From Hexactinellida sp. DTS-2022 (Eukaryota; Porifera; Hexactinellida), in the NCBI GenBank assembly GCA_028753945.1, contig JAPNXP010000001.1:4516501-4580500 (forward strand): a stretch of DNA of 64,000 bases. The letters run 5' to 3'. The notes beneath the pieces were generated by a model. It ran no database searches, had not been told where the DNA came from, and saw only the letters and a list, made by a program, of their open reading frames with translations. The translations under genes were made by a program, and so were the position numbers. Below are positions 11,247-53,439 of the stretch, piece by piece (the stretch's first letter is position 1; each line of letters begins with the position of its first letter).

Positions 11247-14200
11247 TCAATCGAATTGTCCTTGAATGTTAAATTCTTCAGCTGTTTTATTTAGCACGGT
11301 TACTGGTAGAGGATCTGGCTTCGAAAGAAGATTGATTATCATAATTTCTAGGTATAAGACAGTAGGAATTAGCTTTATTAATGCTTCACACGAGTTAGAA
11401 GTCTGTTCACTGCTGTATACACATAAGTACTTAATGGTAGGATGTTTTGCCAATCCTTTAATTACTGAAAACACTCCTTCATCGAATAATTTAACAAAAT
11501 AGAATTCCAATCTAACTAAATTCTTAAGTTCTCGAATAGCAGTACACCATTCAGTTACGTCATCTAGTTGTTTGCTTATTTTTCTTAGTTCTATCAGCAC
11601 TAAGTTAACACAAGATCGTAAAGCAATGAGAAACCCATTCCAACTTTCTAAACCGGTATATTCCAAACCTTCTAAATTCAATACTCTCAAAGCGTTTTGG
11701 TTTTTATGAATCACTTGTATTAGATAGTCTGATACATTTCTGTTTTTTTCGCTATTACTTGAAATTTCTAGATATGAAATGCAAGTCATGTTAACAATGT
11801 GAGATAGGAGTGAGTAAGTATTCAAACTAATTTCTTGCAACTCGTCTAGTTTTGATATCGCATTCATTACCTGTTGGTAGTATTTATTAGGAATGTTATA
11901 TAAGTATAATCCTCTTAATAATGTGGCATTAAGAAGAGCGGGTAGAAGGATCTCGTATTCAGTTTCAAATTCAGAATATTCCTTTTCTAGATGCAAGTAT
12001 TGTAGAGCTGAAAGTTGATTACTAGCTAGTTGTTCAATAAATATATTTGAGTATTTGTTGAAGCTTAACTGCATACCACTCATATTAATATTATCAGTTG
12101 TAGAGAATAAATCAACAGCCGAAACATTTGTTAAATCACAACTGTATAGCTCAATACTGACCCTTGTTTCAATTCTTAACTTAATTTCTTCAAATAGATG
12201 TGTGTAAGCCAAAATTTCAGAGGAACTTTTGTAAAAAAACTCAATAGCCAAGTAACTGAGGTGAGAATTAGCAATACATTCCAGCAATGACATAAACTGA
12301 GTTAGATTGAAGGATAGAGTGTCAACATAAATAACTTGAATGTGATCAACAAGTTGTAGAGACTGTAGAAAACATATCCACTCATTAGGAGAAATAGTTC
12401 CTACTTCATTATTCAGATATATCGAGATAGAATTCTGTATAAATCGATTAAAACAGTTGGTAATCGATTTAGAATTTGTTTCAAAAATTATTGGAATTAA
12501 TTGGATATATTTATTAGTGAATTCATACGAACTTGTGTATTTGATTAATGAGTGTGGCGAAGTGGAAACTCTTGAATATTCGAGTTGGTAACAGAGAGGT
12601 AGATCTGAAACAGTATGAGGTGTCAACTTACGAACCAAAACTGTAAGAACAGCTGCAGATCTCTCAGTTAGCAAGCCACATAAGAACCTAACTACCATTC
12701 TAAATAAAAAGAAATGTTGATCCGAATGTGCTATATATCGTACACTCATACATTGATTTGTCCAACTAGTTGATTTCAGAAAGATAGCACTTGTGAATTC
12801 TTGCATGGTTAAGTGTGCAAATGCCCACACCTTTTTTACAACGCCTACAGACACCTTCATGTAATACTCGTGAGCTAGGCCCAAGCAGTGGCTCTCTATA
12901 TCTACATTGTTTATAATTAGAGGTATATTCTCTGTTGAGGTGAGTTCTCGCAGGTATACACCTAATAATGCTATTAAGCCGATAGAGTGGAGACAATTTT
13001 TCACACAAGGATGGAATAAATCAATTTTTGAGACAGCTGCCAACTTTTTAAATCCCATTCTAAACAGTTGTCGTCTAATTAGATAGCAAGTGAGCTCATC
13101 GTACAACTGTGTAAGTGTCTCGATGTTGACAGATTCATCTCTAAAGAGAGCTGCAAATAGTGATGCGTTGACGGGTATCAACGACAGCAGGCTCATCTCA
13201 TCATACCTCTGGAGTAGTCTCTTGCATTCAATCAGTCTGTGCTCATTTACAATTTGCTTCATGAAGTATAAGTCTCTATTTTCTGGCGAGAAGCCAAGTA
13301 CATGATAATAGCGATTTACTTTCAATTCGTATACTGAAGAAATGTCAGTCCATGCTCCTGGACGTGTTGTTAGTATAATGTTGGATCTGTGGAGAGCTTG
13401 TCTTGATAACAGCAAATATAGGAACGTTTTCCCGAATGGAACCTTTTTAGTAAACTCATCCAATCCATCGATAATCAATAGTAATCCCTCTCCATACGAT
13501 TTGGCCAGATGTGTAGCCATTTCTTTCGACCATTGCATAGCTGGCAATCCTAAACACAGCCATTCCTGAATTAATTCTGATGTGATTGGCCTCTCTTCTT
13601 CAATACGTGTATACTCTAATAAATGCCAATCGATGGTCCGACAAGGGATTGCTATGGTATATGAAATATTCGTCATTTCGTAGTTGCTGAATCTTAATGC
13701 AATCCGTTTTGACAAGAATGTTTTTCCACTACCGGGATTGCCAATAAGACACCAAATTTCTGGCTTATCTGAGCCGTAAAATTTGATTTCTTCTGTAAAA
13801 TCTACTGGTTGAATTTCAATTTCTCTATTTGCAATTTTTCTCAGGTACGCTATATCGTTGTATGTTGTTTCGTCATCCAAGTTAACTTCTCTAGGTTCTT
13901 CTTTCACTATTGTTAATTCAACATAGACTTGTTCTAAGCTGACTGATTCATCTTTACCTAACATTTGCTGAACTTGTTTGAATTGATTTTCAAGGTACGT
14001 TTTCAAACTTGTTTCCCATTGCGCTATTTCTATTGTTTGTGCAGCTAGTTCCCTCTTGATCTTAGCAACGAACTCATCCTCGGACATTCGAAGAAATATC
14101 CCAGTATATTCTTGCATTTTATACGCTAAATCAATTCTGTTTAGTACTCGTAATAAATTTTGGAGATTTTTCAAGTCTTTAGTAATTATATTCTTTTCAA

Positions 14201-14612
14201 GACAGAGGGTAATAATACTGTCAAAGTCTTCTCTAGCTTCCAAATTTCCCATTGACCCGAAAACAATTAACCACCATTCTTTCTTTGAAATTTCAGTCCT
14301 TAACATTGTTAGAAAAGTTTTCATTGATAATTCTTCTGTTTCTTTATTTTGTTCTGTAGGTACAGATACGCATAACCATGGCACCTTAATACCAATTGAT
14401 ATTAAATCATGCCGATTCAGAGTAATTAATGCTTGATAAAACGAGTATGGATTGAAGTTCGACCAATTTCGCATAGCAAACAAGAAGTCTACCCCATCTA
14501 TATCATTTTGACATATTCCTAGAGGTATTTGCATTAGAACTCTCAACTTACTTATGTCATATTTAGTTAATTCTCCGGCGAACTGTACAAGGCCAATTAA
14601 ACTTTGATCCAT
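11247..14612 (-). CDS. NLR-type receptor: tandem DED-like, NACHT, leucine-rich
   Basis: A single 1121-residue exon. Residues about 5-80 and 95-170 look like two death-effector-type six-helix domains (VDFLFAMRNWSNFNPYSFYQ with NRHDLI; MKTFLTMLRTEISKKEWW with NRIDLA). Residues 185-270 are a charged linker. The NACHT ATPase follows: Walker A GNPGSGKT at 291-298, Walker B LLLIIDGLDEF at 377-387, and the sensor LTTRPGAW at 414-421. The C-terminal third, after about 780, is leucine-rich with irregular repeats (for example LQYLHLEKEY, LRVLNLEGLEYTGLE, LVRLEFYFVKL). NLRs of this layout are cytosolic sensors that oligomerise after ligand release and recruit partners through the death-fold domain; a caspase or adaptor with DED is the expected partner. 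The DED assignment is by pattern and could be CARD or DEATH instead. All ATPase motifs are intact and no stop interrupts the frame, so it looks functional. No introns, unlike vertebrate NLRs. Confidence 0.85.
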   Translation of the reverse strand: MDQSLIGLVQFAGELTKYDISKLRVLMQIPLGICQNDIDGVDFLFAMRNWSNFNPYSFYQALITLNRHDLISIGIKVPWLCVSVPTEQNKETEELSMKTFLTMLRTEISKKEWWLIVFGSMGNLEAREDFDSIITLCLEKNIITKDLKNLQNLLRVLNRIDLAYKMQEYTGIFLRMSEDEFVAKIKRELAAQTIEIAQWETSLKTYLENQFKQVQQMLGKDESVSLEQVYVELTIVKEEPREVNLDDETTYNDIAYLRKIANREIEIQPVDFTEEIKFYGSDKPEIWCLIGNPGSGKTFLSKRIALRFSNYEMTNISYTIAIPCRTIDWHLLEYTRIEEERPITSELIQEWLCLGLPAMQWSKEMATHLAKSYGEGLLLIIDGLDEFTKKVPFGKTFLYLLLSRQALHRSNIILTTRPGAWTDISSVYELKVNRYYHVLGFSPENRDLYFMKQIVNEHRLIECKRLLQRYDEMSLLSLIPVNASLFAALFRDESVNIETLTQLYDELTCYLIRRQLFRMGFKKLAAVSKIDLFHPCVKNCLHSIGLIALLGVYLRELTSTENIPLIINNVDIESHCLGLAHEYYMKVSVGVVKKVWAFAHLTMQEFTSAIFLKSTSWTNQCMSVRYIAHSDQHFFLFRMVVRFLCGLLTERSAAVLTVLVRKLTPHTVSDLPLCYQLEYSRVSTSPHSLIKYTSSYEFTNKYIQLIPIIFETNSKSITNCFNRFIQNSISIYLNNEVGTISPNEWICFLQSLQLVDHIQVIYVDTLSFNLTQFMSLLECIANSHLSYLAIEFFYKSSSEILAYTHLFEEIKLRIETRVSIELYSCDLTNVSAVDLFSTTDNINMSGMQLSFNKYSNIFIEQLASNQLSALQYLHLEKEYSEFETEYEILLPALLNATLLRGLYLYNIPNKYYQQVMNAISKLDELQEISLNTYSLLSHIVNMTCISYLEISSNSEKNRNVSDYLIQVIHKNQNALRVLNLEGLEYTGLESWNGFLIALRSCVNLVLIELRKISKQLDDVTEWCTAIRELKNLVRLEFYFVKLFDEGVFSVIKGLAKHPTIKYLCVYSSEQTSNSCEALIKLIPTVLYLEIMIINLLSKPDPLPVTVLNKTAEEFNIQGQFD

Positions 14613-17600
14613 ATATGTGATATGTCCAAATCTATATGTGGAATAATTACTTAAGAAATGAAAATATTTTGAAAATTCTCATTATATATTTAAAAAATAA
14701 AGTTTATCTTCCTGATTTGTAGAAATACGGAAGGCCATGGGAATGGATTTTATTTTTTTATAATTTACTTCAAGCATTACTGTAAGTCAAACAATAAATA
14801 ATGCTATTAAATGGAATAAGACAAAAATTTATATTGTTAAAAGTAAAACTTAAAACTCGATTGTTGTACTTGTGTGTTTATTTGTCCGCATTGTATTAAA
14901 GAGCTACTGGGATATAAACTGGATATATATATTTGAGATAAAGACTAACGTCCAAATGTTAAACAAGTATGTTGATTTCGAATTTGGCATTTATAAATTT
15001 TTATATGAATATGTATTGTGTGGTTTACAAAAATGTGTAGGTAAGGCCAGGTAAATAAATTAATTGTTTATCATCCGGATTTTTTCAGAAAATACGGACG
15101 GCGGTAAGAATTTTAATTTTGGCATGAACCTATGGCATGTACATGGCCCCCCACTTCTTTTTTTGGGAAAACACCACTGCTATACAAGGTATTAAACAAC
15201 TGGTGTTGCAATATACTAAATTATATCGTTACTATGCTAACCTCTTAGGGACATTTCTAGGTGTATAAAATTGCTTTTGGCTACAATTTGAGTATTCATT
15301 AATTCAGTTTTGGTAACTTAGCATGATTATATTAAATGTTTATAATAGTGGGACATCATAACGGCCTTATTGCCGTGAATTGTTCAATTTTGATACAAGC
15401 ATGAAAATTGACACAAACATAGATAAATATATTATATAAATATATCGAAATGGAGGCATCACAAAATTTTAATATTTTCAAGATAGCGGCCAAAAATTGT
15501 CGGAAAAAGTGTAACAAAAGCCCGCTTTCGCGAATACTTGTTAAATGACCTCGTAGAGTGTTTATATGTGTCATTCGAATTGAAGATTCTTTGAAGGGTC
15601 CAAAAATTGTGTTCATAGTAACCGGAAATTCGCATTATCCGTGTTCGTACTAATGAGGTTCTTATCCAATCCCATACCCGAAAGATATAATGGGACGTAT
15701 GTATGGAGACACACACTACTCATTCTTAGACGGAGCTTCCGCCAATGTATCGGTGGAAATTGACGAGGCGGACAAGTACAATACTGTTTTTGCAACCACA
15801 AGAGGATTATATAAATTTAATCGCTTGTATTTTGGTATTATTAATAATGGATCAATGATCAACGGTTGATGCAAAATGGTTACAAGAGACACAGCAATTT
15901 GGTGAAATGGTTAATGAATAAGTGAATTAAAATTTAGAGCAAGCTCGAAATAAAGTGAAAATGTTCTATGATGTGGGTAGAGGATTCGAGAGTCGGAGCA
16001 GGAGAATGGATTCTGTTGTACAATCAATTAATCCCAGGCTGTTTACTGGGGAAATGTAAAATGTCGTAACCGGCCAAAAGTATTTGAACATAATATTATG
16101 AATTAATAGATTCAAGCTTCTAGCAGCATAATAATTAGTAGACACAGTCAACTCCGCTTAATAGAGCCACCGGTTAATCGGATTTCTCCGCTTAATCGGG
16201 TCAAAATTTCACAGGATTTATTGGACAGAATTACAGTTTGGCTTTCAATATTTTCGGTTAATCGGTTTCTCCGCTTAATCGGGTCAAAACAACCTGGTCA
16301 CGAGGTGGCTATAAAATTATATGTTAAGTATAATAAAATCGCAAAATATTTGAACTTAAATTTTTATGGAAGTGTTAAACTTATTAACTATATACGTAAT
16401 TAGCTAATTAAATATATAATTTCTGATTACAATTAGAATATACGAATTCTATTTCGTATTTGAATACTACTACATAGTCTAATTACTCTAGGTGCACAAT
16501 TTCTAATCATTACGATCATTTCCCACTGAGATACAGCCATATTCCCATTTGTGCCACAACAGGCACATGGCAGGAACACTTATGCCACTTCATGGATATA
16601 GTATAAAATTGACTTAAAATAACAACGTTATGAAGTTAGAACTATAGAAATATATTTAAAGTCATTTAGAGAAGTTTAAACAGCCGTCAACAAACTATTA
16701 AAAGCATATTGTGTCTGGAATATAATTCCTGTTGGGCAAATACTTATGGCCGGTAAGTGATGCTATCTAGGTGCATACTATTATACTATATCGGCCAAAT
16801 GATGCAATTTTAATGGGATTGGCAAGGCAATCTTTTTAACATTAAGAATTCAACTTTACAAAGTCGGGTTTTAAATTTAAAAGGTGTTGGTCGATATATA
16901 AACAAGCTCTATAGTAAATTAATGCAAATTGGTTAAACTCACAATAATTTAAGCTTCGAAGATTCAGATGATGAAGAAAAAAGTAATAGATCGATTTAGA
17001 TTAAATTAAGAAAATCTTAGCTAAATTATTTACATTGTATTCTTATACTGTAATGCATATCAACAGTGTTTGAGCATATTAAAATTTGTTAATCCAATAT
17101 CAAGTTGCATATAACTAAATCAACTGGCGTCCAATAATTTCCCGACTCGACCCTTTCACATTATCGATGTGGTGTCTCAAAAACTGGGACACGGACAATT
17201 GCTACGCGGAGACAAAATCGAATCAACCACAAGTCCATTGAAATACGAGTTAAACCAATTTTTAATTTGTTAAGTGTACTTTGTACATTTAATTAATAAA
17301 TATTGTATTCTCATATCATGCCGATGCTTAATATTTTAAAAGTTAAAATATATTATTCTGCCCGGTAGGGTAGTGATTTCATGTTATTCCTAGAAATATT
17401 ACTCTTACAAGCTATATTAATTAAATTCTATCAGTACTAAAGTTGTAGAGTAAGCTGTTTTAGAGACTAGTTTTAAGATAATTAAATTCCAATTGGACTA
17501 GTGTCTCTTCCAGCGAGTTAAGGTACCAGTCCCAGAGGGAGGTATCCGGGGAAATTTCCCCCTGATTTAGAGGTGTTACCCCGTCCGTCCTATGGGCCAT

Positions 17601-18128: not shown

Positions 18129-19417
18129 ATGGACAATTCGTTGGATGAGAAAGGAATAGAGATACAGTTGGACAAGAAGAAAGGAAGATCACTAATCTCG
18201 TTGACTCGAAGGGTTCCGGGAGAAGTGATTATTCAAGAAAGAGCGATAGCTATGTGTGTTATTCCAGAATTTCAACATTCCACTTGTCACTCTTGTCTGC
18301 TTTCACCTCCCAACTTGTTAAGATGCTCTGCCTGTAAGAGAGCTAGGTACTGCAATAGAGAATGCCAGAAGAAAGATTGGAATGTCCATGTAGCTGAGTG
18401 CGAGGTCAGTTGCAACCTCGCTGGTGAAAAGCCTCTGCCTACACTACTCATGTTGCTGATGAGAATGTTAAAGATGAATGAAATAGTGCTAAAGAGTAGA
18501 GGACAATCAATGGCAGATGGATTCTGTACTGAGATACAGGTGGTGGGATCCCAAGAGAAATCAGCAGAAAACATTAAAGAGATGCTATCTCAATATGTAC
18601 AGCTAATTAGGGAGAAATCCAATGGAAAATTACAGGTTGAGCCTAAACTGGCTTATATGGCTTCACAGAAACTCTGCACAAACACCTACTCTGTCCTGAC
18701 AGAGGAGCTTGTACCAGTGGCAGCAGGAGTCTACTCACTAGCTTCTCTGCTTAACCACTCGTGCAGACCTAACTGTATCCAGCATTTCTCTGGGAACCAA
18801 ATAAACATACGAGCTTTAGAGAGTGTGGGGGTGGGAGAAGAGCTAACAGTTAGCTACATAGACATTGTACAAGGGTTGGGAGGGAGGAGGGAGGAGCTGA
18901 TGAAAGGGTATCTATTCAAATGCGAGTGCACGCAGTGTGTGGAGGAATACGACAGACCAGTAGAACTAGATAAATACAGCGAAATAATGCAGGGGATTAG
19001 AGAGTGTAGGAAACAGAATGAGTGGAGGAGAATTCTTGAGATAACTCAGCACATGTTTGACTCTAAGGCTAACACCCATGGATATGATAGTATTAGGATA
19101 ATGGAACAGAGAATGGACTCGCATATAGAGCTGAGAAACTGGGAAGAAGCAGTGACTGACAGCAAGACACTCTCCCAGATTTATGCAGAGATAGGCCTGC
19201 CAGCACACCACCCTCTTATAGTACTGAATATAGCGAAGCTAGCTAAGCTTCTCCTACAGCTGGGTTCCCTAGAGGAGGGAATGGAGTGCATAGAGAGAGA
19301 GGAATGAGGTCTGTTAGGATATGCTACGGAGAGGCTGGAGTCTTGTATCACAGACTCAGTGAGATGTACTCGGCTACAAGAATGGAATTGATACACAAAA
19401 CTAGTGCTATTAATTAA
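18129..19417 (+). CDS. SMYD-family SET/MYND lysine methyltransferase, 3' frameshift
   Basis: The frame from ATG gives 392 residues before a stop at 19305-19307. The SET-N segment is at 19-42 (GRSLISLTRRVPGEVI). A MYND zinc finger is at 53-91, with the full Cys/His set from CHSC through HVAEC. The SET core has SLLNHSCRPNC at 206-216 and LTVSYID at 239-245, and the post-SET cysteines are CECTQC at 265-270. SMYD enzymes transfer methyl from SAM to lysines of histones or cytosolic proteins. The C-terminal helical (TPR-like) region begins after about 285. The ORF ends early, right after an AGAGAGAG run at about 19290-19300; shifting by one AG unit opens a further 38 or so codons (with RICYGEAGVLYHRLSEMYSA) to TAA at 19415-19417. 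SMYD proteins normally run 430-490 residues, so the shift fits a slippage mutation or assembly error. Which SMYD paralogue is not settled. Confidence 0.88.
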
Positions 19418-19454
19418 ATGGTATATAATTACGAATTACTGCTTTAATTAAGTA

Positions 19455-19460
19455 AATAAA
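19455..19460 (+). terminator. Candidate poly(A) signal for SMYD gene
   Basis: AATAAA lies 38 bases after the downstream TAA of the SMYD gene, a usual distance for a short 3' UTR. Such hexamers are common in AT-rich DNA. Confidence 0.4.
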
Positions 19461-19645
19461 TGTATCTACTTGATTCAGACAATTAACCTATTCTAAATAT
19501 ATATAATTAAACACAGTAATAGTGACGAGTGTGAAGTTAGCAAAATATTCAAACGAGCAAACTTCAAATGCCAATTTGACCCACTTACAGATTCTTTATA
19601 TTAATACTTCCATTTCATTTCATTTGTCTTTATCAAACAATATAA

Positions 19646-20215
19646 CAGTGACAGTAGTCCCAATTAACGATTCTAACTTGTGATAATAGTCTCAATAAAC
19701 GATTCTAACTAGTGACAGTAGTCCCAATTAACGATTCTAACTAGTGACAGTAGTCTCAATAAACGATTCTAACTTGTGACAGTAGTCTCAATAAACGATT
19801 CTAACTAGTGACAGTAGTCTCAATAAACGATTCTAACTAGTGACAGTAGTCTCAACAAACGATTCTAACTTGTGACAATAGTCTCAACAAACGATTCTAA
19901 CTTGTGACAATAGTCTCAATAAACGATTCTAACTAGTGACAGTAGTCTCAATAAACGATTCTAACTTGTGACAGTAGTCTCAATAAACGATTCTAACTAG
20001 TGACAGTAGTCTCAATAAACGATTCTAACTTGTGACAGTAGTCTCAATAAACGATTCTAACTTGTGACAGTAGTCCCAATTAACGATTCTAACTTGTGAC
20101 AGTAGTCTCAATAAACGATTCTAACTTGTGACAGTAGTCCCAATTAACGATTCTAACTTGTGACAGTAGTCCCAATAAACGATTCTAACTAGTGACAGTT
20201 GATAAAATTCTAACT
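19646..20215 (+). repeat. Minisatellite, 32-bp unit, about 18 copies
   Basis: Tandem unit GTGACAGTAGTCTCAATAAA followed by CGATTCTAACT(T/A). Variants alternate between TAACTTGTG and TAACTAGTG at the junction, and between CTCAATAAACG, CCCAATTAACG and CTCAACAAACG. It sits between the SMYD gene and a Helitron-like 3' end. Confidence 0.93.
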
Positions 20216-20244
20216 TGTGACAACTTCAAAATTCTAACTAATGC

Positions 20245-20367
20245 AGGCACCTCTATTTTAGGCCTATTTACGTTTAGAATCATTGTTAGAAGTGTAGAAA
20301 CCACACGCCAAACGCGAAGCGGTTGGTGTGTGGTTGTGTTCTGTCGCGAAGCGACCTAGCAAGCGAA
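20245..20367 (+). mobile_element. Helitron 3' end (hairpin and CTAG)
   Basis: The sequence AGGCCTATTTACG leads into a hairpin (CCAAACGCGAAGCGGTTGG) and a tail GCAAGCGAAGCGCACTAG followed by T. The same tail ends the elements at 35482-35988 and 38482-38962. The minisatellite just upstream may be inside this element; a possible head (TCTAAATATATATAATTAAA) is at 19492. That upstream limit is a guess. Confidence 0.6.
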
Positions 20368-20439
20368 GCGCACTAGTAAATATTATATCTGAATGCAAAA
20401 TTCAAATGTTCAAATTTCACCAAATAATGGCTAATTAGT

Positions 20440-20695
20440 AATTACCTGTAGATACTGCCAGCACTTGTGGCGGGCTCACAAGATCGAAATCAAAAGTGAG
20501 CAAGGAATACATTACAAATTTATGGCAAAAAAAAATGTAATTACTATTTGTACGCCATTGGCAACCAATAGTGAAAGACAAGAGCCAATCTGTGTTGACA
20601 AGAGCAAGATACCAGATCAACCTGAAATTAACGATGACATTCATCAGTCGATACTTAGCGAAAAGAGCGTAGATTTAATGGAGGCAGAAACTTGA
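20440..20695 (+). other. Short open stretch, possible exon or remnant
   Basis: An open frame of about 80 codons (CRYCQHLWRAHKIEIKSEQG and onward) preceded by TTACCTGTAG, which could serve as an acceptor site. It is rich in Lys, Glu and Ile, with no family recognised. There is no ATG near the start of the open stretch. Downstream to 21350 the DNA is AT-rich with nothing recognisable. Confidence 0.2.
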
Positions 20696-21357
20696 AAGAT
20701 AATGGCATGGGTATTGGCCAGTCCCCATCTGTCGAAAAGGAAGAACATATAAGAAGCGAACAACAACAAGAATTGAGGTGTTAAGTGAGGACGAAAATGA
20801 AACTTATATTAAAGAAGAATTTGGGAAGTGGTTGAGAACTTGAGACAAACGAAGAACGTTAAAAAAAATACAAGCAAAAGCTACCTGTAAACTTTGAGAA
20901 AATTAGAATATGAAAATGTATTTATAAATCCAAATTAATATTTGAGAGATGTTTTCAAAATCCAAGGACAAACGACGTTCACAAAAAAATATTGGGTCAT
21001 GAAAATAGAAAAAGACGACTTAAAAAATTTCAATTAATATTATGGCGATAGTACATATGGAAAACAAAACATTCAACAGATTCATAATTTTCTACATTAG
21101 AATTTTACACATTAAACGCATTATAAACTATTACCAATTACAGACAGTCACATTATACTTTATCTTACTTCGTAATACTGTACATCTAATTTATGTGTTG
21201 GAAAAGTTTCAATTAATTAATTAGTAAGTTAAAAAAACATTTGAATTCATTTGACCTCTACATATTGATTTAATCAATCAGTGTCGCAGTAATTGATACA
21301 TGTACCTCGAACAGATTTGTTTCCCTCCAAAAGGATTTATAGCTTGCAAATATTATT

Positions 21358-22103
21358 TAATTAAGTTAACCATAGACTCCTTAAGTAAAGGACTGGAACG
21401 TCGCGATCTCGGGGGTTTAACTTGAGTCTGAGAGGCTCCAATTATAAAAATTGATAAAGCATTAAGTTTCCGGTCTCCAAATGTGATTTTTGGCATATAG
21501 GGGTAACTTTTGGCACCCGTCAACAATTTGAGGTTTTCACTCAAAATTTATCACACCTCGACAAGTTATGACGTCATTGTCACATTTCGAGAACCTGAAA
21601 AGTGGCAGAACCCAACCACACACCAACCGCTTCGAGGTTGGTGTGTGGTTTATACACTTCTACCATTGATTATAAAGCGTAAATAGGTCTAAATAGTCGA
21701 ATTTAAAAATGTGAAATTTTAGTGATTACGTCATCATGTGATAATGAGTAAGCATATTGGCAATCTGGTGTGACCAAAGTGTCCGCTTCATTAATGTGCA
21801 TGTTCTATTAAATTTTCAGATTTTTATCTCTTAGAGTGCGCGAATTATGTGCGATTAAGTGACTTTTCAGGGTTCTCGAAATGTGACAATGACGTCATAA
21901 CTTGTCGAGGTGTGAGAAATTTTGTGTGGAAACCTCAACTTGTTGGCGGGTGCCAAAAGTTACCCCTATATGCCAAAAATCACATTTGGAGACCGGAAAC
22001 TTAATGCTTTATCAATTTTTATAATTGGAGCCTCTCAGACTCAAGTTAAAACCCCCGAGATCGCGACGTTCCAGTCCTTTACTTAAGGAGTCTATGAAGT
22101 TAA
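21358..22103. mobile_element. Two Helitron copies as a 750-bp inverted repeat
   Basis: Bases about 21358-21594 are repeated as their complement at 21869-22103, nearly perfectly (for example GGCATATAGGGGTAACTTTT and its complement; ACTCCTTAAGTAAAGGACTG and its complement). The 270-base centre carries the family 3' hairpin ACCAACCGCTTCGAGGTTGG. The arms are the internal sequence of the Helitron family seen whole at 35482-35988. Apparent reading frames in the arms are identical shadows of each other. Confidence 0.85.
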
Positions 22104-22339
22104 CCCATCCGTGCACCGTATAAATTAAACCTAATCGCTCTAATTCTAAATACCTGTTCGTGTCCTTGTAATAGAGTGTTAATTGTGGATTAACCATTAG
22201 TCAATACTCAATGGAAAGGTCAATATAGGAGGTTTCGTCCCATTCCAGGGAGTCATCAGGAGGTTGAACCTCGACCTACAAGTCACAAAATGAGGTGCTC
22301 ATCGAAATGTGAAATCTCTTTGACCACTTGGTGACATTT

Positions 22340-22745
22340 TAACCGTTTCTTTAACAACTTCATCTCCCTTGAACATAATAAATCGCTAATACCAGTCGTC
22401 TCCATCTAAGCACTTCGTGTCCCATTAACCGTCTCGTGTCCCTTTAACCGGTTCGTGTCCATTTACACATTTCATTTACATTTACCCGATCGTATCCCTT
22501 TAACTCTTCATGTCCTGTTAACCATATCCTGCACCATTGGCAGCCTCGTGTCCCTTTAACCGTAGCGTGTCTTTAACAGTTTCGTCTCCCTTGAACATAG
22601 TCAAATCACTAATACCAGTCGTCTCCATTAAAGCACTTCGTGTCCCTTTAACCATATCGTGTACATTTAACCGCATCGTGTCCCTTTAAAGTATACATTT
22701 CCCTTCATCCTTTCATGTCCCTTTAACCGATTCGTGTCCCTTTAA
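22340..22745 (+). repeat. Degenerate tandem repeat, TCGTGTCCCTTTAACCG unit
   Basis: Roughly 17-base variants of TCGTGTCCCTTTAACCG run in tandem. A longer unit containing AATACCAGTCGTCTCCAT occurs at about 22391 and 22610, showing a higher-order period near 220 bases. Nothing coding is seen. Confidence 0.75.
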
Positions 22746-23071
22746 TTAACCTATTTCTTCTTCATTCATTTATTCTCGCATTTATTTGCTTACTTAATTG
22801 CATCTTTTTGGTTGAACTTAATTGAACTACTTTTTTCTTTTATCTCCTGTTCATTTTTCATTTATTTTTGCTTGTACTATTTTAAATTGATCATTTCACT
22901 ACGTATTTCTAAATCTCGTGTCCGTTTACCCGCAGTTGTCGTGGTTTGCGAATATAAGCAAATACGTGTTCTAGTTCATAGAAGGATTGTGTAGTTTTCT
23001 CATTTTCAATTTTCAATTCGTTGAATATTTCTTATAATTAATCTGAAATAAGTCTTGCTCTCTTCCAACTA

Positions 23072-23160
23072 CAGTCCGGTTCTTTTATTATGAACATTCA
23101 AGGGACCAAAAACTTCATAATAAGCAGACGAAATTTGTTCACAATAAGCAGAGCTGACTG
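23072..23160. mobile_element. 89-bp TA-flanked MITE
   Basis: Begins CAGTCCGGTTCTTTTATTAT and ends AATAAGCAGAGCTGACTG, an imperfect inverted repeat, with TA on both sides (23070-23071, 23161-23162). Resembles pogo-type short elements elsewhere in the window. Confidence 0.6.
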
Positions 23161-23631
23161 TATTAATTAATCCACCAAACAGAGTTCTAATTTCGGGCTG
23201 TATTCGAATTATTTGGTTTCAAATTATAATCTCGGTCTATAGAATAGGCTGTTGCCAGCCAAGCTAGCTAAGTTAGAATATATTATATTATATTCTAAAA
23301 TTATTATTAATTGGATCTTACTAACTCGTCTCATGTTAGCTACTGTAGTATATTTACAAAATTAGTTTAAAAGTAAAAGGGAAAATAGCAATTGAATAAT
23401 CATTCATGCCCAATAATTGAAATTGCATTATACAAAATAACTTGATAGTTCGAGTTGTAGTCTTAAAATGCTTTATGAAAATGATGTGTGATCAAAATTT
23501 ACCAAAAATACATTCGTTTTGTACAAATCAGACTGAAAAGCCTCAAAATACCGTCGGTTCTCAGTTAATTAATAAAATAAAGGAAATGGCTAGAAGCTTT
23601 GAGCGGGTATAAAGAATTACAATCACAAATA

Positions 23632-26514
23632 TCACAATATCAAAGGAACCTGTGCTTTCTCGAGTGCAGTTTTACAAACAGCACTTACCTCAGAAGGCTG
23701 CAGCATATCCCTACCTCCTTCTGAGTAGAAGAGCCTCTCGATCTGTTTGATTGCCTCTATCCTATTCTTAGAGAGTCTCTCGTTGGAGAGAGTAATGAAC
23801 TGAAAAAATTCTTTCTGGAACAATCTGTGCACTGGGTATATCTCGAGGATGTCCTGACTCGGGTCGGATTCCTTGATTTTGTTGATATCCTTATTCAGCT
23901 CCTGTAGGAGGAACAGCTTGCACTTGTTAACTTCCTGCAGTCCAGTGCATACGAGGTAGCGCTCGGAGCTGAGCGGCTCTGAGAGCGCCGGCTTGACAAT
24001 ACAAATCTCCGAGAACACGGTGTGCAGGAAGTATATGAGCCCAGCAGTAGCTCTCGTCATAATATCATAGATTCTGCAGATGAACACGCCGCCCTTCTCC
24101 AGACAGTGCAGTGCGATTATAATCTGTACGAGGAAGTACTGCCTTGCTCTCTTCTCCTCGTGTCCGCGGAGATACACCATGAGGCTGCCCGGCTCGCAGG
24201 CACAGTCTCCCAGCACCAGCTCCACCCGCGAGCGGGAAATACACTCCTTGTACGTCTGCTCCAGGTCCTCGTCCAGTAGCAGGTCTACGGGCTGCTCCAG
24301 CAGGAGACTCACGGCCGTGCCCGTCTCCCGCCCGCTGTATACAGCACCCGACATCTCTGTGCGTCGGACCCCGTAGCCCTGAGCGGCCGGAAGCTTCCAG
24401 CGAAGGTAGTGAGAGAACCCACTGGGGTCGTGACTGAGGTCAAGGAATCGGATCGGCTTATCTCTGCTAGCTGAGAACTTAGAAGAGAAGCTCATAAGAC
24501 TGTCAATTTCCGCGAGAGCTATCCCCTCCACTGGGATGGGGTGGGGCGGAGATAGGAGATGGAACGCATAGAACGGGTACTCTCTGGCGGCCCTCTGTAT
24601 CATGGGCTCCCTGTTCGTGAATAGAAGGACCTTCGCAGAGGCCCTAGCCTCAGTCAGCTCCTGCAGAGTGTCGCAATAGCAGAATCTAGAGTTCAGCACT
24701 GACTGCAGAGAGTCTCCGAACAGAGAGCGCATCTCCGACTTGGAATCTCCCAGAAGCAGCCAGCGGACATCCTCCTCCGTGTCCTCAGCTCGAACGGCGT
24801 CTCGCTCGTAGCCGAGTCCCATGCCCCACTGCTGGGACTGGGGGAGCACCGGCTCCGCGCGGCCCTCCCCGCTCGGGCCCAGCCCCTCCCCCTCCTGGTG
24901 TCCCATGGACCTGAGGAGGTTCTTGGACACCTGCGAGTAGTCCCCGGGTTCCTCCAGGCGCGGCCTCTTGCTGGCGGAAGCCGGGTCGTCACTGGAAGTG
25001 GGAATCTCGTGTAGCTCGTGCCAGCTCATCAGCTTAAGCTTGCGTCTGTCATTGAGACTGTCCTGGTTCTTCTGTCGGGAGCCCCTGGAGTCGGGGCGGA
25101 GGAGGGCCATCACACTCAACTTGATTCCGTCTAGAAACAGCTCGGGAAGTATTCTGAGATTGTCCGGTATGAACTTCATGCTGCACCGTCTGTCGTAGTA
25201 CTCGACAGCAAACTGTTGCACATCCGATAGGAACTGCTGCTGGGGTTTGGTGAACACTGTGAAAAGCCGCAGATTGGACTCTATCTGCTCCCGCTGATAC
25301 CCGCTGAACAACTCCGCTGCTTGTCTGGCAGTTGTCATGAACGCAGGGTTTATAGCAGAGAGAGGGAACAGAGATCTCTCGTGGTCTGCTAGGGTGTAGG
25401 CTGACTCCAACTTTTGCTGGTGCCACTCTGAAAAGCTGTCAGCGCCGTGGAACTTGAGACATACCAAGTACACCTCTGAGTTGCCGGCCTTAGAGGTGGC
25501 AGGCTTGAACACGTGCAGTTGAGAGAATGAGCAGGCCAGTAGGTACAGCAGACAGAGGGTTTGGCTCTCAAACAGTGTGAACAGTTTCAGTACGAAGCTC
25601 CCGCCTGGAGAGAGCAGTCGCATCGCTGCCATGCTCTCGCAGTAGTGCAACTGTGACACCCGCAGCTCCTGCTGGTTGGGGTTGTCTTGGCAGTCTCTGC
25701 TGCCGTCTGCAGTGACCAGATCTACGCGTGGGGTCTCCTCCCGAACCTGTCTCTCCAGACTCAGAATGTTCTTCCATCGCATTACATTCCCGGTGTTGTC
25801 AAGCCCAAAGCTCCATTTGTCAATCGTCTCCAGAATGAACCTGTCATCGTCCACCATTTCTCCCAGGTCGTTAGACTCGTTGTACGGATTCAGAGTCATG
25901 CCACGCCACTTCCAGGGCTTGCTGGCGCTGCGGGCTCGGATATAATGGTTGAAACTGCCAATGAAGCCGCCTGGGGCCTCACACAGGTGCACAGAGTAGA
26001 ACAGATCGTCCGTTTCTGTTTCGCAGATGCTGGGGTACTGACAGAGAATCTCGTGGAACTTGGCCCAGGCCTGCGTGCACATTTCAACTCGATGCTGTCT
26101 GCGAATATTCTTCACAATAAGACCAGCTTTGTTGGTGCGCCGTGTATGTTCGTGCCAGAGCTCGGGATCCTTGTCGTTGAGTTGGTCTTTGACCGAGTTC
26201 AGCTCGGACTTGAGGGACTGTAGCTTGTCTATTGTGAAGTGTGGGCCGGAGAAGAGGAGGTCTGCCAAGGGCAACTGGTAGCGAGGGGCCTCCACTGGGT
26301 TGGTGTCGAAAGAGTACTTTTTGCTGAAAAGTCGTTCCACTTCAAGTTGAACTTCCTCGCTGAAAACTCGCTTTTCAAACTCTCTCTCTCGCTTAGGGTT
26401 CCTAGGGGCCCCGTGCCCTCGATAGCCGGACCCGATCCCCGGCCTCCGGGGGTACCGCCCCCTGCCTCTGTGGAACCCACCCTCTCCCCTCCCGCGATGA
26501 GCCATGGAATACAT
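23632..26514 (-). CDS. Cap 2'-O-methyltransferase: CMTR2-like half fused to CMTR1-like half
   Basis: One 960-residue exon (ATG at 26514; a second Met at residue 4 could be used). Residues 5-40 are Arg/Gly-rich. Residues 130-420 are a CMTR2-type FtsJ/RrmJ domain: NKAG at 128-131, SAM motif HLCEAPGGF at 176-184, LNPYNESN, FGLDNTGN, TADGS with Asp270, SFVLK with Lys310, and FKPATSKAGNSEVYLVCL. The K-D-K catalytic pattern appears intact. KRPRLEE near 517 is a likely NLS. Residues 531-568 form a G-patch (LLRSMGHQEGEGLG, then WGMGLGYE). Residues 690-930 resemble the CMTR1 methyltransferase domain (FICRIYDIMTRATAGLIYFL; SSERYLVCTGLQ; ITLSNE), but the SAM motif reads DLSHDPSGF and the catalytic Lys is Arg814; Asp770 remains. 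Cap methyltransferases modify the 2'-O of the first (CMTR1) or second (CMTR2) transcribed nucleotide of mRNA. No CMTR1 guanylyltransferase-like or WW domain follows. Coding is GC-richer than its surroundings. Confidence 0.9.
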   Translation of the reverse strand: MYSMAHRGRGEGGFHRGRGRYPRRPGIGSGYRGHGAPRNPKREREFEKRVFSEEVQLEVERLFSKKYSFDTNPVEAPRYQLPLADLLFSGPHFTIDKLQSLKSELNSVKDQLNDKDPELWHEHTRRTNKAGLIVKNIRRQHRVEMCTQAWAKFHEILCQYPSICETETDDLFYSVHLCEAPGGFIGSFNHYIRARSASKPWKWRGMTLNPYNESNDLGEMVDDDRFILETIDKWSFGLDNTGNVMRWKNILSLERQVREETPRVDLVTADGSRDCQDNPNQQELRVSQLHYCESMAAMRLLSPGGSFVLKLFTLFESQTLCLLYLLACSFSQLHVFKPATSKAGNSEVYLVCLKFHGADSFSEWHQQKLESAYTLADHERSLFPLSAINPAFMTTARQAAELFSGYQREQIESNLRLFTVFTKPQQQFLSDVQQFAVEYYDRRCSMKFIPDNLRILPELFLDGIKLSVMALLRPDSRGSRQKNQDSLNDRRKLKLMSWHELHEIPTSSDDPASASKRPRLEEPGDYSQVSKNLLRSMGHQEGEGLGPSGEGRAEPVLPQSQQWGMGLGYERDAVRAEDTEEDVRWLLLGDSKSEMRSLFGDSLQSVLNSRFCYCDTLQELTEARASAKVLLFTNREPMIQRAAREYPFYAFHLLSPPHPIPVEGIALAEIDSLMSFSSKFSASRDKPIRFLDLSHDPSGFSHYLRWKLPAAQGYGVRRTEMSGAVYSGRETGTAVSLLLEQPVDLLLDEDLEQTYKECISRSRVELVLGDCACEPGSLMVYLRGHEEKRARQYFLVQIIIALHCLEKGGVFICRIYDIMTRATAGLIYFLHTVFSEICIVKPALSEPLSSERYLVCTGLQEVNKCKLFLLQELNKDINKIKESDPSQDILEIYPVHRLFQKEFFQFITLSNERLSKNRIEAIKQIERLFYSEGGRDMLQPSEVSAVCKTALEKAQVPLIL

Positions 26515-26686
26515 AGGGTGCTCCTGGTCAGCAATAATTGCAGTATATGAACGTACTTTCTAGGTAGCGCTTGTCTAAACCAACTAGAATTGAGGATTTT
26601 ATAACAAACAATGGTACTGGATGCATGTTATGAAAGTCGAGTGAGCATGCTCATATGGGATAACTTACATGTTCATTGTAGTAAAC

Positions 26687-27178
26687 CAGGGCTCTTCAAT
26701 TAGTGGCCCGCGGGCCAAAGTGGCCCGCTGCCTATACATTGGTGGCCCGCCCAATCTTTTCAGTTTATATATTTATTCGATATTCTTTCGCTCATAGCTA
26801 CATGCTTTGCAACTGAAACTGTAATTTATCCTTCTAGGCCCTAGGATATAGTAGTTACTTGATCATTCCAATATTCAAATTTATGTTTTAATAGCTAATA
26901 TACAACCATTGGCATACTGTTTTTTACAGCACGTTACTTTCCCGATATTCTTTATTAATTGTCACATGCATTAAAATCCCCAATTGCCTGCTTGTAGTCT
27001 TGTATGCATATGATGTATCCATATCATATATATCACATAATCACATAATGTGTTTTATTCTTACCTATCTGTTATTAGCGTATAAGTAATCATTATGGGT
27101 ACTCCAGTTACGAAGAGCACGGGGGAGTGCCTGATTATTCTAAAGTGGCCCGGGGATAAAACTAATTGAAGAGCCCTG
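26687..27178. mobile_element. 492-bp hAT-type MITE
   Basis: An exact 8-bp TSD TAGTAAAC lies at 26679-26686 and 27179-27186. Terminal inverted repeats are CAGGGCTCTTCAATTAG and its complement, with GTGGCCCG blocks inside each end. There is no ORF. CAGGG ends with 8-bp TSDs are diagnostic of hAT elements. Confidence 0.93.
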
Positions 27179-27311
27179 TAGTAAACCATCATAATCTAGG
27201 TACGTAACAGTATTTACCAGTTATTCTAATGGTTTTCCGACTTTTCTATCCTCGTTTTGTAGTATAACAACTGTATGTCGTTTGATAATTAAAATTTTCT
27301 ATTGAGATGAC

Positions 27312-27786
27312 CAGAGCATTAAAGGAGCGCACTTCAAAGAGCGGCGCACCAGGTGCGCGCTCCATTTTTCAGGAGCGCAAGGTGGAGTGCGCTCCAAATT
27401 TTTAGGAGCGCGCTCCTACTAAATCGTTACCTTAGTAACCTTAGTAACCTTACACGTACAATTACATCATATAAACTAGGGCACGTATAATTTGTTACGT
27501 AAATATTCATAGATAGTGTAATAATATAAGTTTCATGAGGTTTCCGCAGTTTTTAAACGAAAATAAGAGTTAGTTAACTAGAGAAATATCTTTGTTTATT
27601 TAACACATTTTGGTCATAAGAAATGAAGGAGCGCAAAGTAAGCGCGCTCCAATTTTCCAGGAGCGGGAGCGAGAGTGCGCTCCTTTTTTTCGGAGGAGCG
27701 AAAACAGGAGCGACGGCGCTCCTTTTTATGATTGGGAGCGCGGAGCGGGAGCGCGTTCCGAAAAATGAGGAGCGCTTAATGCTCTG
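27312..27786. mobile_element. 475-bp hAT-type MITE with GGAGCGC arrays
   Basis: An exact 8-bp TSD GAGATGAC lies at 27304-27311 and 27787-27794. Ends are CAGAGCATTAA and TTAATGCTCTG. Both subterminal regions carry many GGAGCGC/GCGCTCC motifs, likely transposase binding sites. The apparent reading frame at 27574-27927 crosses the element boundary and is spurious. Confidence 0.92.
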
Positions 27787-28118
27787 GAGATGACTCATAA
27801 ACCATATATGAGCATGCTCAATAAGACAATAACCCATATGAGGATGATCACTCGACCTACTGAGCATGCTCACTCGATTTTTAATTAAATACCTCACTGG
27901 ATGCGATATATGCGTACATGTAATCATAGCCTATGATGTAGTATAGAGGAAGAAACACCTACCTTATAAATTATGACCTACCTTATAAATTGAAAATATA
28001 ATTATTATATATATAATCGCACTCGCATAAAATATCAAACCCGACAATGTTCTTATATCCGTCATCCACTGTATACATAATTCACAAAGTATAAATTCAG
28101 CTTGTAAGAAACGGATAG

Positions 28119-41145: not shown

Positions 41146-44100
41146 ATGACATGCCTCGTACCTGGTTGTAAGTCAAACTATTCTGACAAAGATGAATATG
41201 TATGTTGCAGTGTATACCCGCACATGGTGTGTGCGGGCACACACTGGTGTATATCCGCACACACTATATGACGTTGGTTTTATTAATATAAGTTTATTAG
41301 CGAGATTAGTTATTTATTATTATTGCAAATTATTACGTTGGAAGGTTTGGTGTTTATTGTTGCTTTTCTTTTCTGCACATTTTAATCCATTATAGTCCCT
41401 TTCACAAGTGTAGGAGTTTTATTTTCATCATCTAACAACATATTTTAGCCAGACTAATTCATTGATTGTGTGCGGATATACACCAGTGTGTGCCCGCACA
41501 CACCATGTGCGGATATACACTGCAACATATACCTGTTTTCTCTTTCCCCACTGATGTTGAAACTCGTGAGAAGTGGTTCCGAGCAATACCTAGGCAGAGA
41601 GAAGACTACGAGATGAATAAACGATTGAAGGTACGTACTTTGTTATAATATGTTTACTTTTATATTGTATTCTATGTCTTTTGTTTTGAAGGTCTGCATA
41701 CACCATTTCCATGAAGAAGACATAGAGAGGACCATTCAATACTTCAATGGAATGGAGATGATTGAGACGATCAGGAAGAAAGTGGCTCTGAAGAAGTGTG
41801 CAGTCCCTAGCATCTTTCCAAACTGTCCTAGCTATCTGACAGATGCTGCTGATAGATGTCAAAGACTATCTTTAGATGTTAAGGAGGAGAAGAGGGTACA
41901 GGAAGCCTACCAGAAGAGCCGCGCAGATTTCAAAGAAACTGAATCTAAGTTTATTCTTTCTACTCTTAATTGTATTATTTCTAAGTTACATCTAATTGAA
42001 CTACCTAACGGTTGGCTTCTTCATCGACCCAATTCTACAATCATTCTATTTCTTAAGATTCACTATCATAATGAAATTTCTACGATCGAACGTTCAATAA
42101 TTGTTGATGAAAAATTAGATTGTAAGGCTTTTTATAAAGAAAATAATAGAATCAAACTATCTTGTAATTCGTTCAACGATATCAGATTGTTAGAAAATAT
42201 TATTCATGAAGTTGAAATATTTGAAATGAGTCCAAAAGATTGCTCAATTTCCACAGCGACCCCTTTGAAAAAACATGTCGAGAATGCCATTCATAATCTT
42301 TCTAGTGCTTTTGATACACTAGATCCTACCCATTCCACATTTGATTTCGAAGCCGAGAATGATTCTATGCTAATTCGTCTTAATTTTTTGCTCGATCAGC
42401 TGAAATACTTAATTGTTGATAAACATGCTCGTCGTTATAATATTCTCACTCAGGTCTTTTGTCTAAAAGTTCACGGAATTTCACCAGCTTGTTATCGGCT
42501 TATCCAAAGCTCTAACTGTATAATACTTCCACACGAACGTAATTTGTTGAAGATCAAAAATAGTATTGGCCTAGAGAGTGAGTATACTAAAATTCTTCAA
42601 GAAATTGCTACCACGTTTAATGATTTAGAGCGCCATGTGATTCTTCAAATGGATGAAGTTCACATTCGTAGTGATGCATCCTATAAGGGAGGAAGGGTAA
42701 TTGGGTCGATTCGTAATCCGGATGATCCACATACTACAGTTTTTTCTATGATGGTTTCTAGTTTATCGGCCAAGTTTTCCACCATTGTGCGATTAATACC
42801 TTTGGGTTCTTCATCTACAGAATCATTATATCCAATTGTTAAATCTACTATTTGTGACATCGAAGCTTGTGGTCTGTTTGTTGAAGCTGTGTGTACTGAT
42901 AATTATCCACTCAATGTTCGTTTATACAAATTCTTTTCAATTAATTCGAGACTGGAACCAAAGGTACAGCACCCATGCAATCCACAAAGAAGTTTAATTT
43001 TGTTTTTTGATTTTGTTCATATCATTAAGTCCATTAGGAATAATTGGTTAAATCTAAAAAATTTAGACAATACATTTATTTTTCCGAAATTTGCTGAATG
43101 TAAATTATGTGTACAACAAAATATCAGTAACGTAAACAAAAGTTTTTACGTCTCCATTTCTATAACCAACATTTCGACCACTCATTTTAGCTCTAAATCT
43201 CTTTATCCTGAACTATGTTATGCACCCTTTCAGGATATCCGTAATTTATTCAATTCTGATAAATGTAATGTCTTGAAGCGAGCACCAAGATTAACAGCGA
43301 AAGCGTGTTGGCCCTCAAGGTTAGAACGACAAAATGTTAGTTTTGCTTTGAAAATTTTCCATGAGACAACATATGCCGGCTTATTATCGTGGAAAATGGA
43401 AAAAGACATCATACACACGAATCAAACAGTAGAATTCCTTGAATTAATCAATCAGGTGTGGAAACTATTCAATGTCAACTGGGTCGGAAAAGATATACGT
43501 TTTAACGATGAATTTCAGCTCCAATTTACCCAGGAGATTTTCGTTTACAATTTTTAAACAACGTCGTCTCTTGGTTGGATATTTTGGAACAATCTGCCAT
43601 CTTTATATGGAAAGTTAACACCACAAACCTTTACCAGTTTCAGACACACATGCGAGGCGTTACCACTGCTGGTCAAACAACTTACCGAGAACTGCGGATA
43701 CCAGTACCTTCTAACTGCAAGAATTCAAAATGATGCGCTGGAGCACCACTTTGGTTTATATAGACAGATGTCAGGGTCTCACTACCAGATTTCATTTAAC
43801 CAAATTTTGGAAAGCGAACGCAGACTCCAACTTTCAAACATTCTAAAAGTGTTCGCTCTAAAATACGGTGCTATCTCTTGTGAAGACAGTATTTCTCTTA
43901 AAGAATACCTTCATAAATTTGCTGACGATTTTGATAGTTGTAATGAGGAGCAACACGATATAGAACTTTATCTAATCACATTGAATGAAATTTCAGTCCC
44001 TGAAATAGAGGTTTCTCAAATGGAATGTCTCGTTTATATGCAGGATACGCAGTCTTCTCTTACTTTAAGAAGTCTAATGGCTGTCTATCTTGCCATCATC

Positions 44101-52158: not shown

Positions 52159-53439
52159 GGTTACACCAACAGCTAAACATGCAATTGAAACTGGATCGGA
52201 ACGGTCAGTGAGAACTAGAGGCGTACGTATGTCCCCCAAAGCGGAAAGGGAGGTGTTTAATCAACTGGATCAAATGTTGGAAAAGGTATCGTGAGACCTT
52301 CTTGCTCCCCATGGGCGGCTAGAGTGGTACTAGTGGAGAAGAAAGATAAATCATTGCGTTTTGCTGTCGACTATAGGGGACTAAATGACATTACTCGTAA
52401 GGATGCCTATCCCATCCCAGACGTTAGGGATATGCTAGATAAATTACATGAAAGTGTGTTTTACTCGTGATTGGATGGCGCTTCAGTGTACTGGTTGAAC
52501 CTATTAGAGAAGAGGATATCCCAAGACAGCATATATAATCCAGCGAGGCCAATCCGAATACTGTGCCATGCCCTTTGGGCTAACGAACGCTCCCGCGACG
52601 TACCAGCGAGTTATCGATATGGTGCTTCGTAAGGCATCTACGATCTTAGCAGATGACACGCTGATATATTCACAGAGCTTTCGGAAACACATTAATCACA
52701 TTCAGAATACAATGGAATTATATCGCCAAGCTAAGATGCAACTCCGAAAAGAAAAATGCATCTTGGTCTTTTCGGAAATGGCTTCTCCTATGATTTCAAG
52801 CAAGGAAATGCCCTATGAAGATGGGGGGATGTTAAAGAAAAGAGCTTTCAACATTTAAGGAGAGGGTTAAGTTCAGATTCGGTATGCCTTGTGTTCCCTC
52901 AGACTCAATGGAACAAGACATTTTACATGGAGTGTGGTGCATCAAGAGAGGGAATAGGGGCTGTGCTATCTCAAGAATACGAGGGAAAGCTGAGGTCAGT
53001 TTCCTTCTTTTCAAGTATGCTAAATAAGGCGCAGATAAACTACAGTGCGTCAGAGTTGGTGGCATGGGCAATCGTTGCTGCGGCGAGAAAATGGCGGAAA
53101 TATCTACAAGCTGCTTCATTGAAGGAGATAAGGACGGACCATAACCCATTGCAATGGTTAAGACGTCACGGGGCCCGAGAGGGAAGTTATCCCGTTAGCT
53201 TATCGAACTAGAGTCAATAAACTACAATATTCAGTACATCCGAGGAAAGGACGAAGAGGTTAACAACGAGCCAGAATATTTTGAACAATTTGTTTACCCT
53301 GTCGATAGAGTCTTCCCGAGCTAGGAAATGGGCGCAAGACAATTAGAAGACCCTGCGATAAGAGGTGCGAAGGATCAAATGGAAACTCGTAATATGGTAA
53401 CGGCGTAAAGCATGGCCTACTTACTTAATATACGGCTAT

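What the first reader, a model, noticed from the sequence alone, without database searches (positions are those of the whole stretch)
23632..26514. One protein carries a CMTR2-like active half and a degenerate CMTR1-like half joined by a G-patch
In well-known animals CMTR1 (G-patch, methyltransferase, GTase-like, WW) and CMTR2 are separate proteins acting on cap1 and cap2. Here residues 130-420 match CMTR2 with an apparent K-D-K catalytic set (Lys129, Asp270, Lys310). Residues 531-930 carry a G-patch followed by a CMTR1-like domain whose SAM motif is DLSHDPSGF and whose catalytic Lys is Arg814. Human CMTR2 is described as having a second non-catalytic methyltransferase-like domain, but no G-patch that I know of. 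Either a CMTR2-CMTR1 fusion turned a cap1 enzyme into a regulatory module (the G-patch in CMTR1 recruits DHX15), or this is an ancestral CMTR2 architecture.
Basis: partly seen in the sequence, partly recalled or inferred. Interest (0 to 1): 0.78.

Follow-up and report, generated by a model that had tools for sequence, protein, structure and literature searches.

The report
Cap methyltransferase CMTR2 with a G-patch
This is a normal-looking CMTR2 gene, for an enzyme that methylates the start of messenger RNAs, except that it carries a helicase-recruiting G-patch that the human version appears to lack, which hints that the dead second half of CMTR2 descends from its sister enzyme CMTR1.

Summary
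The open frame is real: window 26514 to 23632, minus strand, 960 codons without a stop. A G-patch (527-570) follows, then a degenerate CMTR1-like Rossmann domain (triad A666-D770-R814).

The two-domain layout is not new: human CMTR2 is published as a catalytic N domain plus a non-catalytic C domain needed for activity. Human CMTR2 letters that I recalled match both halves. So this is a CMTR2, not a novel CMTR2-CMTR1 fusion; a separate CMTR1 is in the genome.

The unusual part is the G-patch. It keeps the three leucines that match DHX15-contact leucines of human CMTR1 and is the reciprocal best match of that G-patch in a small comparison. With profile evidence this favours descent of CMTR2's C domain from a G-patch-bearing CMTR1-like protein, the G-patch being lost in the human line. 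The tree did not resolve this, and no other G-patch CMTR2 could be looked for. New variant of a known kind; moderate interest.

The parts
23632..26514 (-). CMTR2-type gene, 960 codons, single open frame (ATG at 26514, stop ends at 23632)
   Evidence: six-frame protein searches of the 112 Mb genome found no second CMTR2
25450..26073 (-). N-terminal catalytic Rossmann methyltransferase domain (residues 148-355, Pfam FtsJ); SAM motif HLCEAPGGF
   Evidence: groups with the recalled human CMTR2 N domain, support 100/99
26059..26061 (-). K152, first catalytic lysine (equivalent to human CMTR2 K117)
   Evidence: human residue numbers from PMC12592727
25705..25707 (-). D270, catalytic Asp (human D235)
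25585..25587 (-). K310, second catalytic lysine (human K275)
24805..24936 (-). G-patch, residues 527-570; L533, L545 and L567 correspond to human CMTR1 L94, L106 and L128
   Evidence: Pfam; leucines; human leucine numbers from PMC6071836
23941..24459 (-). C-terminal degenerate Rossmann methyltransferase-like domain, residues 686-858
   Evidence: FtsJ 1.5e-15; triad A666-D770-R814 by alignment with own CMTR1 K264-D388-K428
23725..23934 (-). block after the C-terminal Rossmann domain (residues 861-930), similar to the same block of CMTR1 and of the recalled human CMTR2 C-terminus; the N half has no similar block
23683..23688 (-). splice-donor-like GTAAGT (after GAG) at codon 943; the last 18 codons may be intron

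Best explanation
The gene is a CMTR2, a cap-adjacent (cap2) mRNA 2'-O-ribose methyltransferase, and the only one found in this genome. The N domain binds SAM through HLCEAPGGF and transfers the methyl group with K152-D270-K310. The C domain is the ordinary non-catalytic Rossmann domain of CMTR2: two of its three catalytic residues and glycines of its SAM motif are lost, and it most likely supports folding or RNA placement. Between them lies a G-patch that most likely binds the OB-fold of DHX15, so that the helicase is brought to capped 5' ends: opening structured ends for methylation, or restraining the enzyme, both of which are reported for human CMTR1. The C module most likely descends from a CMTR1-like protein that already had its G-patch, joined behind the CMTR2 catalytic domain before this lineage and vertebrates separated; the human line then lost the G-patch. 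Shown here: the frame, the domains, the residues, the separate CMTR1 and DHX15 genes, the similarity pattern. Inferred: cap2 activity, DHX15 binding, the order of gain and loss, and that the organism is an animal.
For: Recalled human CMTR2 (letters from memory; five of five residues named in the passages seen, K117, D235, K275, L291, S508, fall right) matches the N half at 41% over 449 residues, 340 bits, and the C half at 31% over 137, 68.6 bits. Profile comparison, two rows a side: C domain against CMTR1, score 152 over 226 columns; against the CMTR2 N domain, 61 over 97 columns; yardstick CMTR1 against CMTR2 N, 156 over 176. The block after the Rossmann domain: C half against own CMTR1 z 6.0 (1 of 1000 shuffles reach it), recalled human C-terminus against own CMTR1 z 4.6 (3 of 1000), N half z -0.1 (510 of 1000). 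G-patch: reciprocal best match with human CMTR1 among 15 comparators (12 other G-patches of this genome and 3 human ones); three of three DHX15-contact leucines kept (mutation of L94 and L106 abolishes DHX15 binding in human CMTR1, PMC6071836, passages). A DHX15 gene is present: a 329-residue piece of L031 has 611.9 bits to DHX15 chain 8ejm_A, its best hit. Separate CMTR1 with G-patch and FtsJ. A G-patch model made from 11 G-patches of this genome finds the window protein (26.8 bits) and gives no match in the recalled human CMTR2 up to E 100.
Against: The tree of eight Rossmann domains leaves the C half open: the best tree does not unite it with the recalled human C domain (together: not rejected, p-AU 0.425), nor with CMTR1 (p-AU 0.366; both C domains with CMTR1, 0.439), and an internal duplication inside CMTR2 is not rejected (p-AU 0.199); the recalled human C row is a very long branch. 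The stretch between G-patch and Rossmann domain shows no significant likeness to CMTR1 (z 1.4, 107 of 1000) but a weak one to the N half (z 3.1, 13 of 1000). This genome's own CMTR1 G-patch is only tied seventh of 15 for the window's, and human CMTR1 wins by little (94 against 89); 3 human G-patches are a small sample. The aromatic residue that G-patches carry after Met-Gly is His539 here. Both structure models are of low confidence (mean pLDDT 31 and 44). One G-patch CMTR2 was seen, and the human CMTR2 letters are recalled.
Confidence: 0.52

Rival explanations
1. CMTR2 with a lineage-specific G-patch: an ordinary CMTR2 whose linker acquired a G-patch from another protein in this lineage alone.
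For: No G-patch in the recalled human CMTR2 (z -0.3 and 1.0 for residues 457-560; no match to a G-patch model over the whole length). CMTR2 is not named in the main text of a 2026 review of G-patch proteins (0 occurrences; of its table of human proteins I saw only the start). The best other G-patch of this genome (L015) scores nearly as high as human CMTR1 (89 against 94). Spacer not similar to CMTR1.
Against: The G-patch sits before a CMTR1-like Rossmann domain, in the same order as in CMTR1, and is the reciprocal best match of the human CMTR1 G-patch.
Confidence: 0.27
2. The C domain arose by internal duplication of the CMTR2 catalytic domain, not from CMTR1; the G-patch came separately.
For: Not rejected by the tree (p-AU 0.199); N and C halves are similar over 98 residues, 50.8 bits; weak spacer similarity of N and C halves (z 3.1, 13 of 1000).
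Against: Profile score to CMTR1 is 152 against 61 to the N domain; the block after the Rossmann domain resembles CMTR1's and not the N half's (z -0.7 for N against C).
Confidence: 0.15
3. Recent CMTR2-CMTR1 gene fusion particular to this lineage.
For: Both modules lie in one frame, and the C module resembles CMTR1.
Against: Ordinary CMTR2 already has the second domain (PMC12592727, PMC6414751, passages); the recalled human C-terminus matches the C half better (68 bits) than own CMTR1 (44 bits); the C half is only 26% identical to own CMTR1 over 442 residues, and no WW domain or CMTR1 tail was found in it or nearby.
Confidence: 0.03
4. Artefact: two transcripts, mis-join or decaying copy.
For: No RNA data; donor-like sites at codons 735 and 943, so the last 18 codons may be intron; third-position GC falls to 0.47 in codons 901-960.
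Against: One stop-free frame through both halves, like codon composition in the two halves (third-position GC 0.68 and 0.70), no second copy found in the genome.
Confidence: 0.03

Closest known systems
Human CMTR2 (FTSJD1), cap2 2'-O-ribose methyltransferase
   Same: N-terminal catalytic Rossmann domain with K-D-K triad and a non-catalytic C-terminal methyltransferase-like domain; N half 41% identical over 449 residues, C half 31% over 137 (recalled letters)
   Different: No G-patch found in the recalled human letters; in the alignment they have nothing opposite the SAM motif of the C domain that is still recognisable here; 770 residues as recalled, against 960
CMTR1, cap1 2'-O-ribose methyltransferase (human, and this genome's own copy in L002)
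   Same: G-patch followed by a Rossmann methyltransferase domain and the block after it resemble the C half
   Different: CMTR1 keeps the triad (own K264-D388-K428) and has a WW domain (own copy 26.8 bits against a cut-off of 26.9) and in humans a guanylyltransferase-like domain (PMC6071836); neither was seen in the window protein
DHX15-binding G-patch proteins (NKRF, RBM5)
   Same: G-patch likeness and leucines conserved among DHX15 binders (PMC6071836, passages)
   Different: Other proteins altogether outside the G-patch; His instead of the aromatic residue here

Membership tests
CMTR2 (cap2 2'-O-methyltransferase) | N-terminal FtsJ/Rossmann domain groups with CMTR2 and not with CMTR1 | tested here: met
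   100/99 support with the recalled human CMTR2 N domain (eight rows, human letters recalled)
CMTR2 (cap2 2'-O-methyltransferase) | K-D-K catalytic triad | tested here: met
   K152, D270, K310
CMTR2 (cap2 2'-O-methyltransferase) | C-terminal non-catalytic methyltransferase-like domain | tested here: met
   FtsJ in the C half with triad A666-D770-R814; 68 bits to the recalled human C-terminus
CMTR2 (cap2 2'-O-methyltransferase) | C domain groups with other CMTR2 C domains in a tree | tested here: inconclusive
   not united in the best tree; holding them together not rejected, p-AU 0.425
CMTR2 (cap2 2'-O-methyltransferase) | methylates the second transcribed nucleotide | not testable with these tools
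   needs enzyme assay
CMTR1 (cap1 2'-O-methyltransferase) | G-patch before the methyltransferase domain | tested here: met
   C half: G-patch 527-570, Rossmann domain 686-858
CMTR1 (cap1 2'-O-methyltransferase) | catalytic triad in the domain that follows the G-patch | tested here: not met
   two of three residues replaced
CMTR1 (cap1 2'-O-methyltransferase) | GTase-like domain and WW domain at the C-terminus | tested here: not met
   no WW match; best match of the own CMTR1 tail in window 19301-28100 has E 0.28
DHX15-binding G-patch | G-patch above Pfam cut-off with the contact leucines | tested here: met
   36.1 bits against 22; L533, L545, L567
DHX15-binding G-patch | aromatic residue after the conserved Met-Gly | tested here: not met
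   His539; consensus from PMC6071836 and PMC13111387
DHX15-binding G-patch | binds DHX15 | not testable with these tools
   a DHX15 gene is present

The most novel reading that the evidence does not exclude
CMTR2 was born by joining a catalytic cap methyltransferase to a G-patch-bearing CMTR1-like protein, whose catalytic domain died and became a regulatory module. This gene preserves that ancestral, helicase-recruiting CMTR2, and cap2 methylation was originally coupled to DHX15, as cap1 methylation still is in humans.
Probability: 0.4. Interest if true: 0.62.

Novelty: new variant of a known kind. Interest (0 to 1): 0.45.

Why it matters
CMTR2's dead second domain is required for activity (PMC12592727, PMC6414751, passages), but the passages that I saw do not say where it came from or what it does. 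A CMTR2 that still carries a CMTR1-like G-patch and a recognisable SAM motif is a less decayed version in which that origin can be traced, and it makes a helicase link for cap2 methylation directly testable.

Tried and rejected
Lys129 as catalytic residue: rejected, the equivalent of human K117 is K152.

More family members: viral contigs was scanned three times (P0001, A2, A4), with no relative confirmed among 3, 11 and 138 pattern matches; genome contigs twice (A2: 0 of 47; A4: 1 of 63, L028). The phage, plasmid and E. coli collections were not searched. L028 is a CMTR1-like gene on a contig labelled Verrucomicrobiaceae, most likely eukaryote contamination; its fragment went into A6 only.

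Tree: eight rows. Of the FtsJ relatives of this genome (12 matches) two, L003 and L004, served as outgroup; L028 and the other matches were left out.

Structure: full length with own CMTR1 (pLDDT 31) and C half with three further rows (pLDDT 44, pTM 0.45). Foldseek on the second put six CMTR1 chains first, but with TM-scores to the query of 0.38-0.43 and rmsd 5.9-11.5, and own CMTR1 was in the alignment, so I give this little weight.

Downstream exon with the CMTR1 tail: no match better than E 0.28. Organism: 112.4 Mb, 18 contigs, one match to an exact 18S pattern; no Wnt match, with a control that did not ring; not named. A sponge was my guess; a paper search on it gave nothing usable.

Papers not held: Smietanski 2014 and Werner 2011, which may discuss the origin of the C domain.

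Mended on re-check: the motif start (692, not 691); my notebook's A667, which is A666; the notebook's remark that CMTR2 is not in a table of human G-patch proteins, of which I saw only the start; the length of 770, which is recalled and not confirmed by a call; the tree's failure to unite the two C domains, now told. For the last reason I lowered the best explanation from 0.60 to 0.52 and the novel case from 0.45 to 0.40.

Full report
The observation. The finding's coordinates hold one open frame on the minus strand, ATG at 26514 and stop ending at 23632, 960 codons with no intron needed. Scanned apart, the N half has FtsJ (3.2e-26) and the C half has G-patch (6.2e-9) and FtsJ (1.5e-15), all above Pfam's cut-offs. 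The triad of the N half is K152-D270-K310. In the C half the aligned residues are A666, D770 and R814, against K264, D388 and K428 in this genome's own CMTR1, and CAGPGGF has become SHDPSGF. The C domain is therefore unlikely to be an active methyltransferase. Two splice-donor-like hexamers lie in the frame, at codons 735 and 943; the second leaves the last 18 codons in doubt.

What it is. Passages of papers state that human CMTR2 has a catalytic N-terminal and a non-catalytic C-terminal Rossmann domain, the triad being K117-D235-K275, and that the C domain is needed for activity (PMC12592727; PMC6414751). A figure legend describes C. elegans CMTR2 in the same way (PMC9479742, passages). The collections that I searched gave no CMTR2 sequence, so I used human CMTR2 recalled from memory. 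Five of five residues named in the passages fall right in it, which makes the recall credible but not verified. It matches the N half with 340 bits and the C half with 68.6 bits. No second CMTR2 was found in the 112 Mb genome, and a separate CMTR1 has G-patch, FtsJ and a WW match just under its Pfam cut-off (26.8 against 26.9 bits). The two-halves layout is thus ordinary.

The unusual part is the G-patch. The recalled human linker (residues 457-560) shows no similarity to it (z -0.3), a G-patch model from 11 G-patches of this genome, the window's left out, finds the window protein and nothing in the recalled human protein, and a review of G-patch proteins has no mention of CMTR2 in its main text. 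Five papers hold both words CMTR2 and G-patch; in the passages that I saw of three of them (PMC6232587, PMC6071836, PMC6414751) the cap methyltransferase with the G-patch is CMTR1; the other two I saw only in the listing. A further search (13 papers, 12 listed) shows no title on a CMTR2 G-patch. These searches cover openly licensed papers only, so I cannot say that it is not in print.

Where the C module came from. Profile comparison puts the C domain nearer to CMTR1 (152, 226 columns) than to the CMTR2 N domain (61, 97 columns). The block behind the Rossmann domain links the C half and the recalled human C-terminus with CMTR1, and not the N halves. The window's G-patch and that of human CMTR1 are each other's best match among 15 comparators. 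Against this, the tree is unresolved: it unites neither the two C domains with each other nor the C half with CMTR1, and rejects none of the four groupings tested, internal duplication included (p-AU 0.425, 0.366, 0.439 and 0.199). The spacer between G-patch and Rossmann domain is not similar to CMTR1, own CMTR1's G-patch is only tied seventh for the window's, and the margin is small. I take descent from a G-patch-bearing CMTR1-like protein as likely, not shown.

How it likely works. Human CMTR1 binds the OB-fold of DHX15 through its G-patch; mutation of L94 and L106 abolishes binding (PMC6071836, passages). L533, L545 and L567 hold two of these places and that of L128, while own CMTR1 has M, L and I. 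One deviation is His539 in place of the aromatic residue. DHX15 is encoded in the genome. In humans the contact has been reported both to help methylation of structured 5' ends (PMC6232587, passages) and to reduce activity by about half (PMC6071836); which holds here is open. That human CMTR2 methylates the first nucleotide too, but is better on the second and third, is from PMC9479742 (passages).

Verdict. A CMTR2 with a retained or gained G-patch: a new variant of a known kind.

Noticed in passing
window 23683-23688, minus strand: GAG followed by GTAAGT at codon 943, a strong splice-donor-like site; the last 18 codons may be intron read-through.
   Followed up: partly
window 23632-26514: Third-position GC is 0.70 here against 0.30-0.50 in five other frames of the window; reason unknown.
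   Followed up: no
window 11247-14678, minus strand: Large NACHT protein with weak, below-cut-off NLRC4-HD2 and FISNA matches, an NLR-like gene in one frame.
   Followed up: no
window 41629-43557, plus strand: Transposase-like frame (TNP-like RNase H domain).
   Followed up: no
window 52508-53211, plus strand: Piece of a retroelement: reverse transcriptase and RNase H domains in two overlapping frames.
   Followed up: no
L028:3001-3645: CMTR1-like gene, apparently split by introns, on a pond MAG contig labelled Verrucomicrobiaceae, most likely a eukaryote contaminant.
   Followed up: partly
window 25450-26073, minus strand: The closest solved structure by sequence for the N half is African swine fever virus EP424R (74 bits). 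Werner 2011, recalled by title and not read, calls this family horizontally mobile.
   Followed up: no
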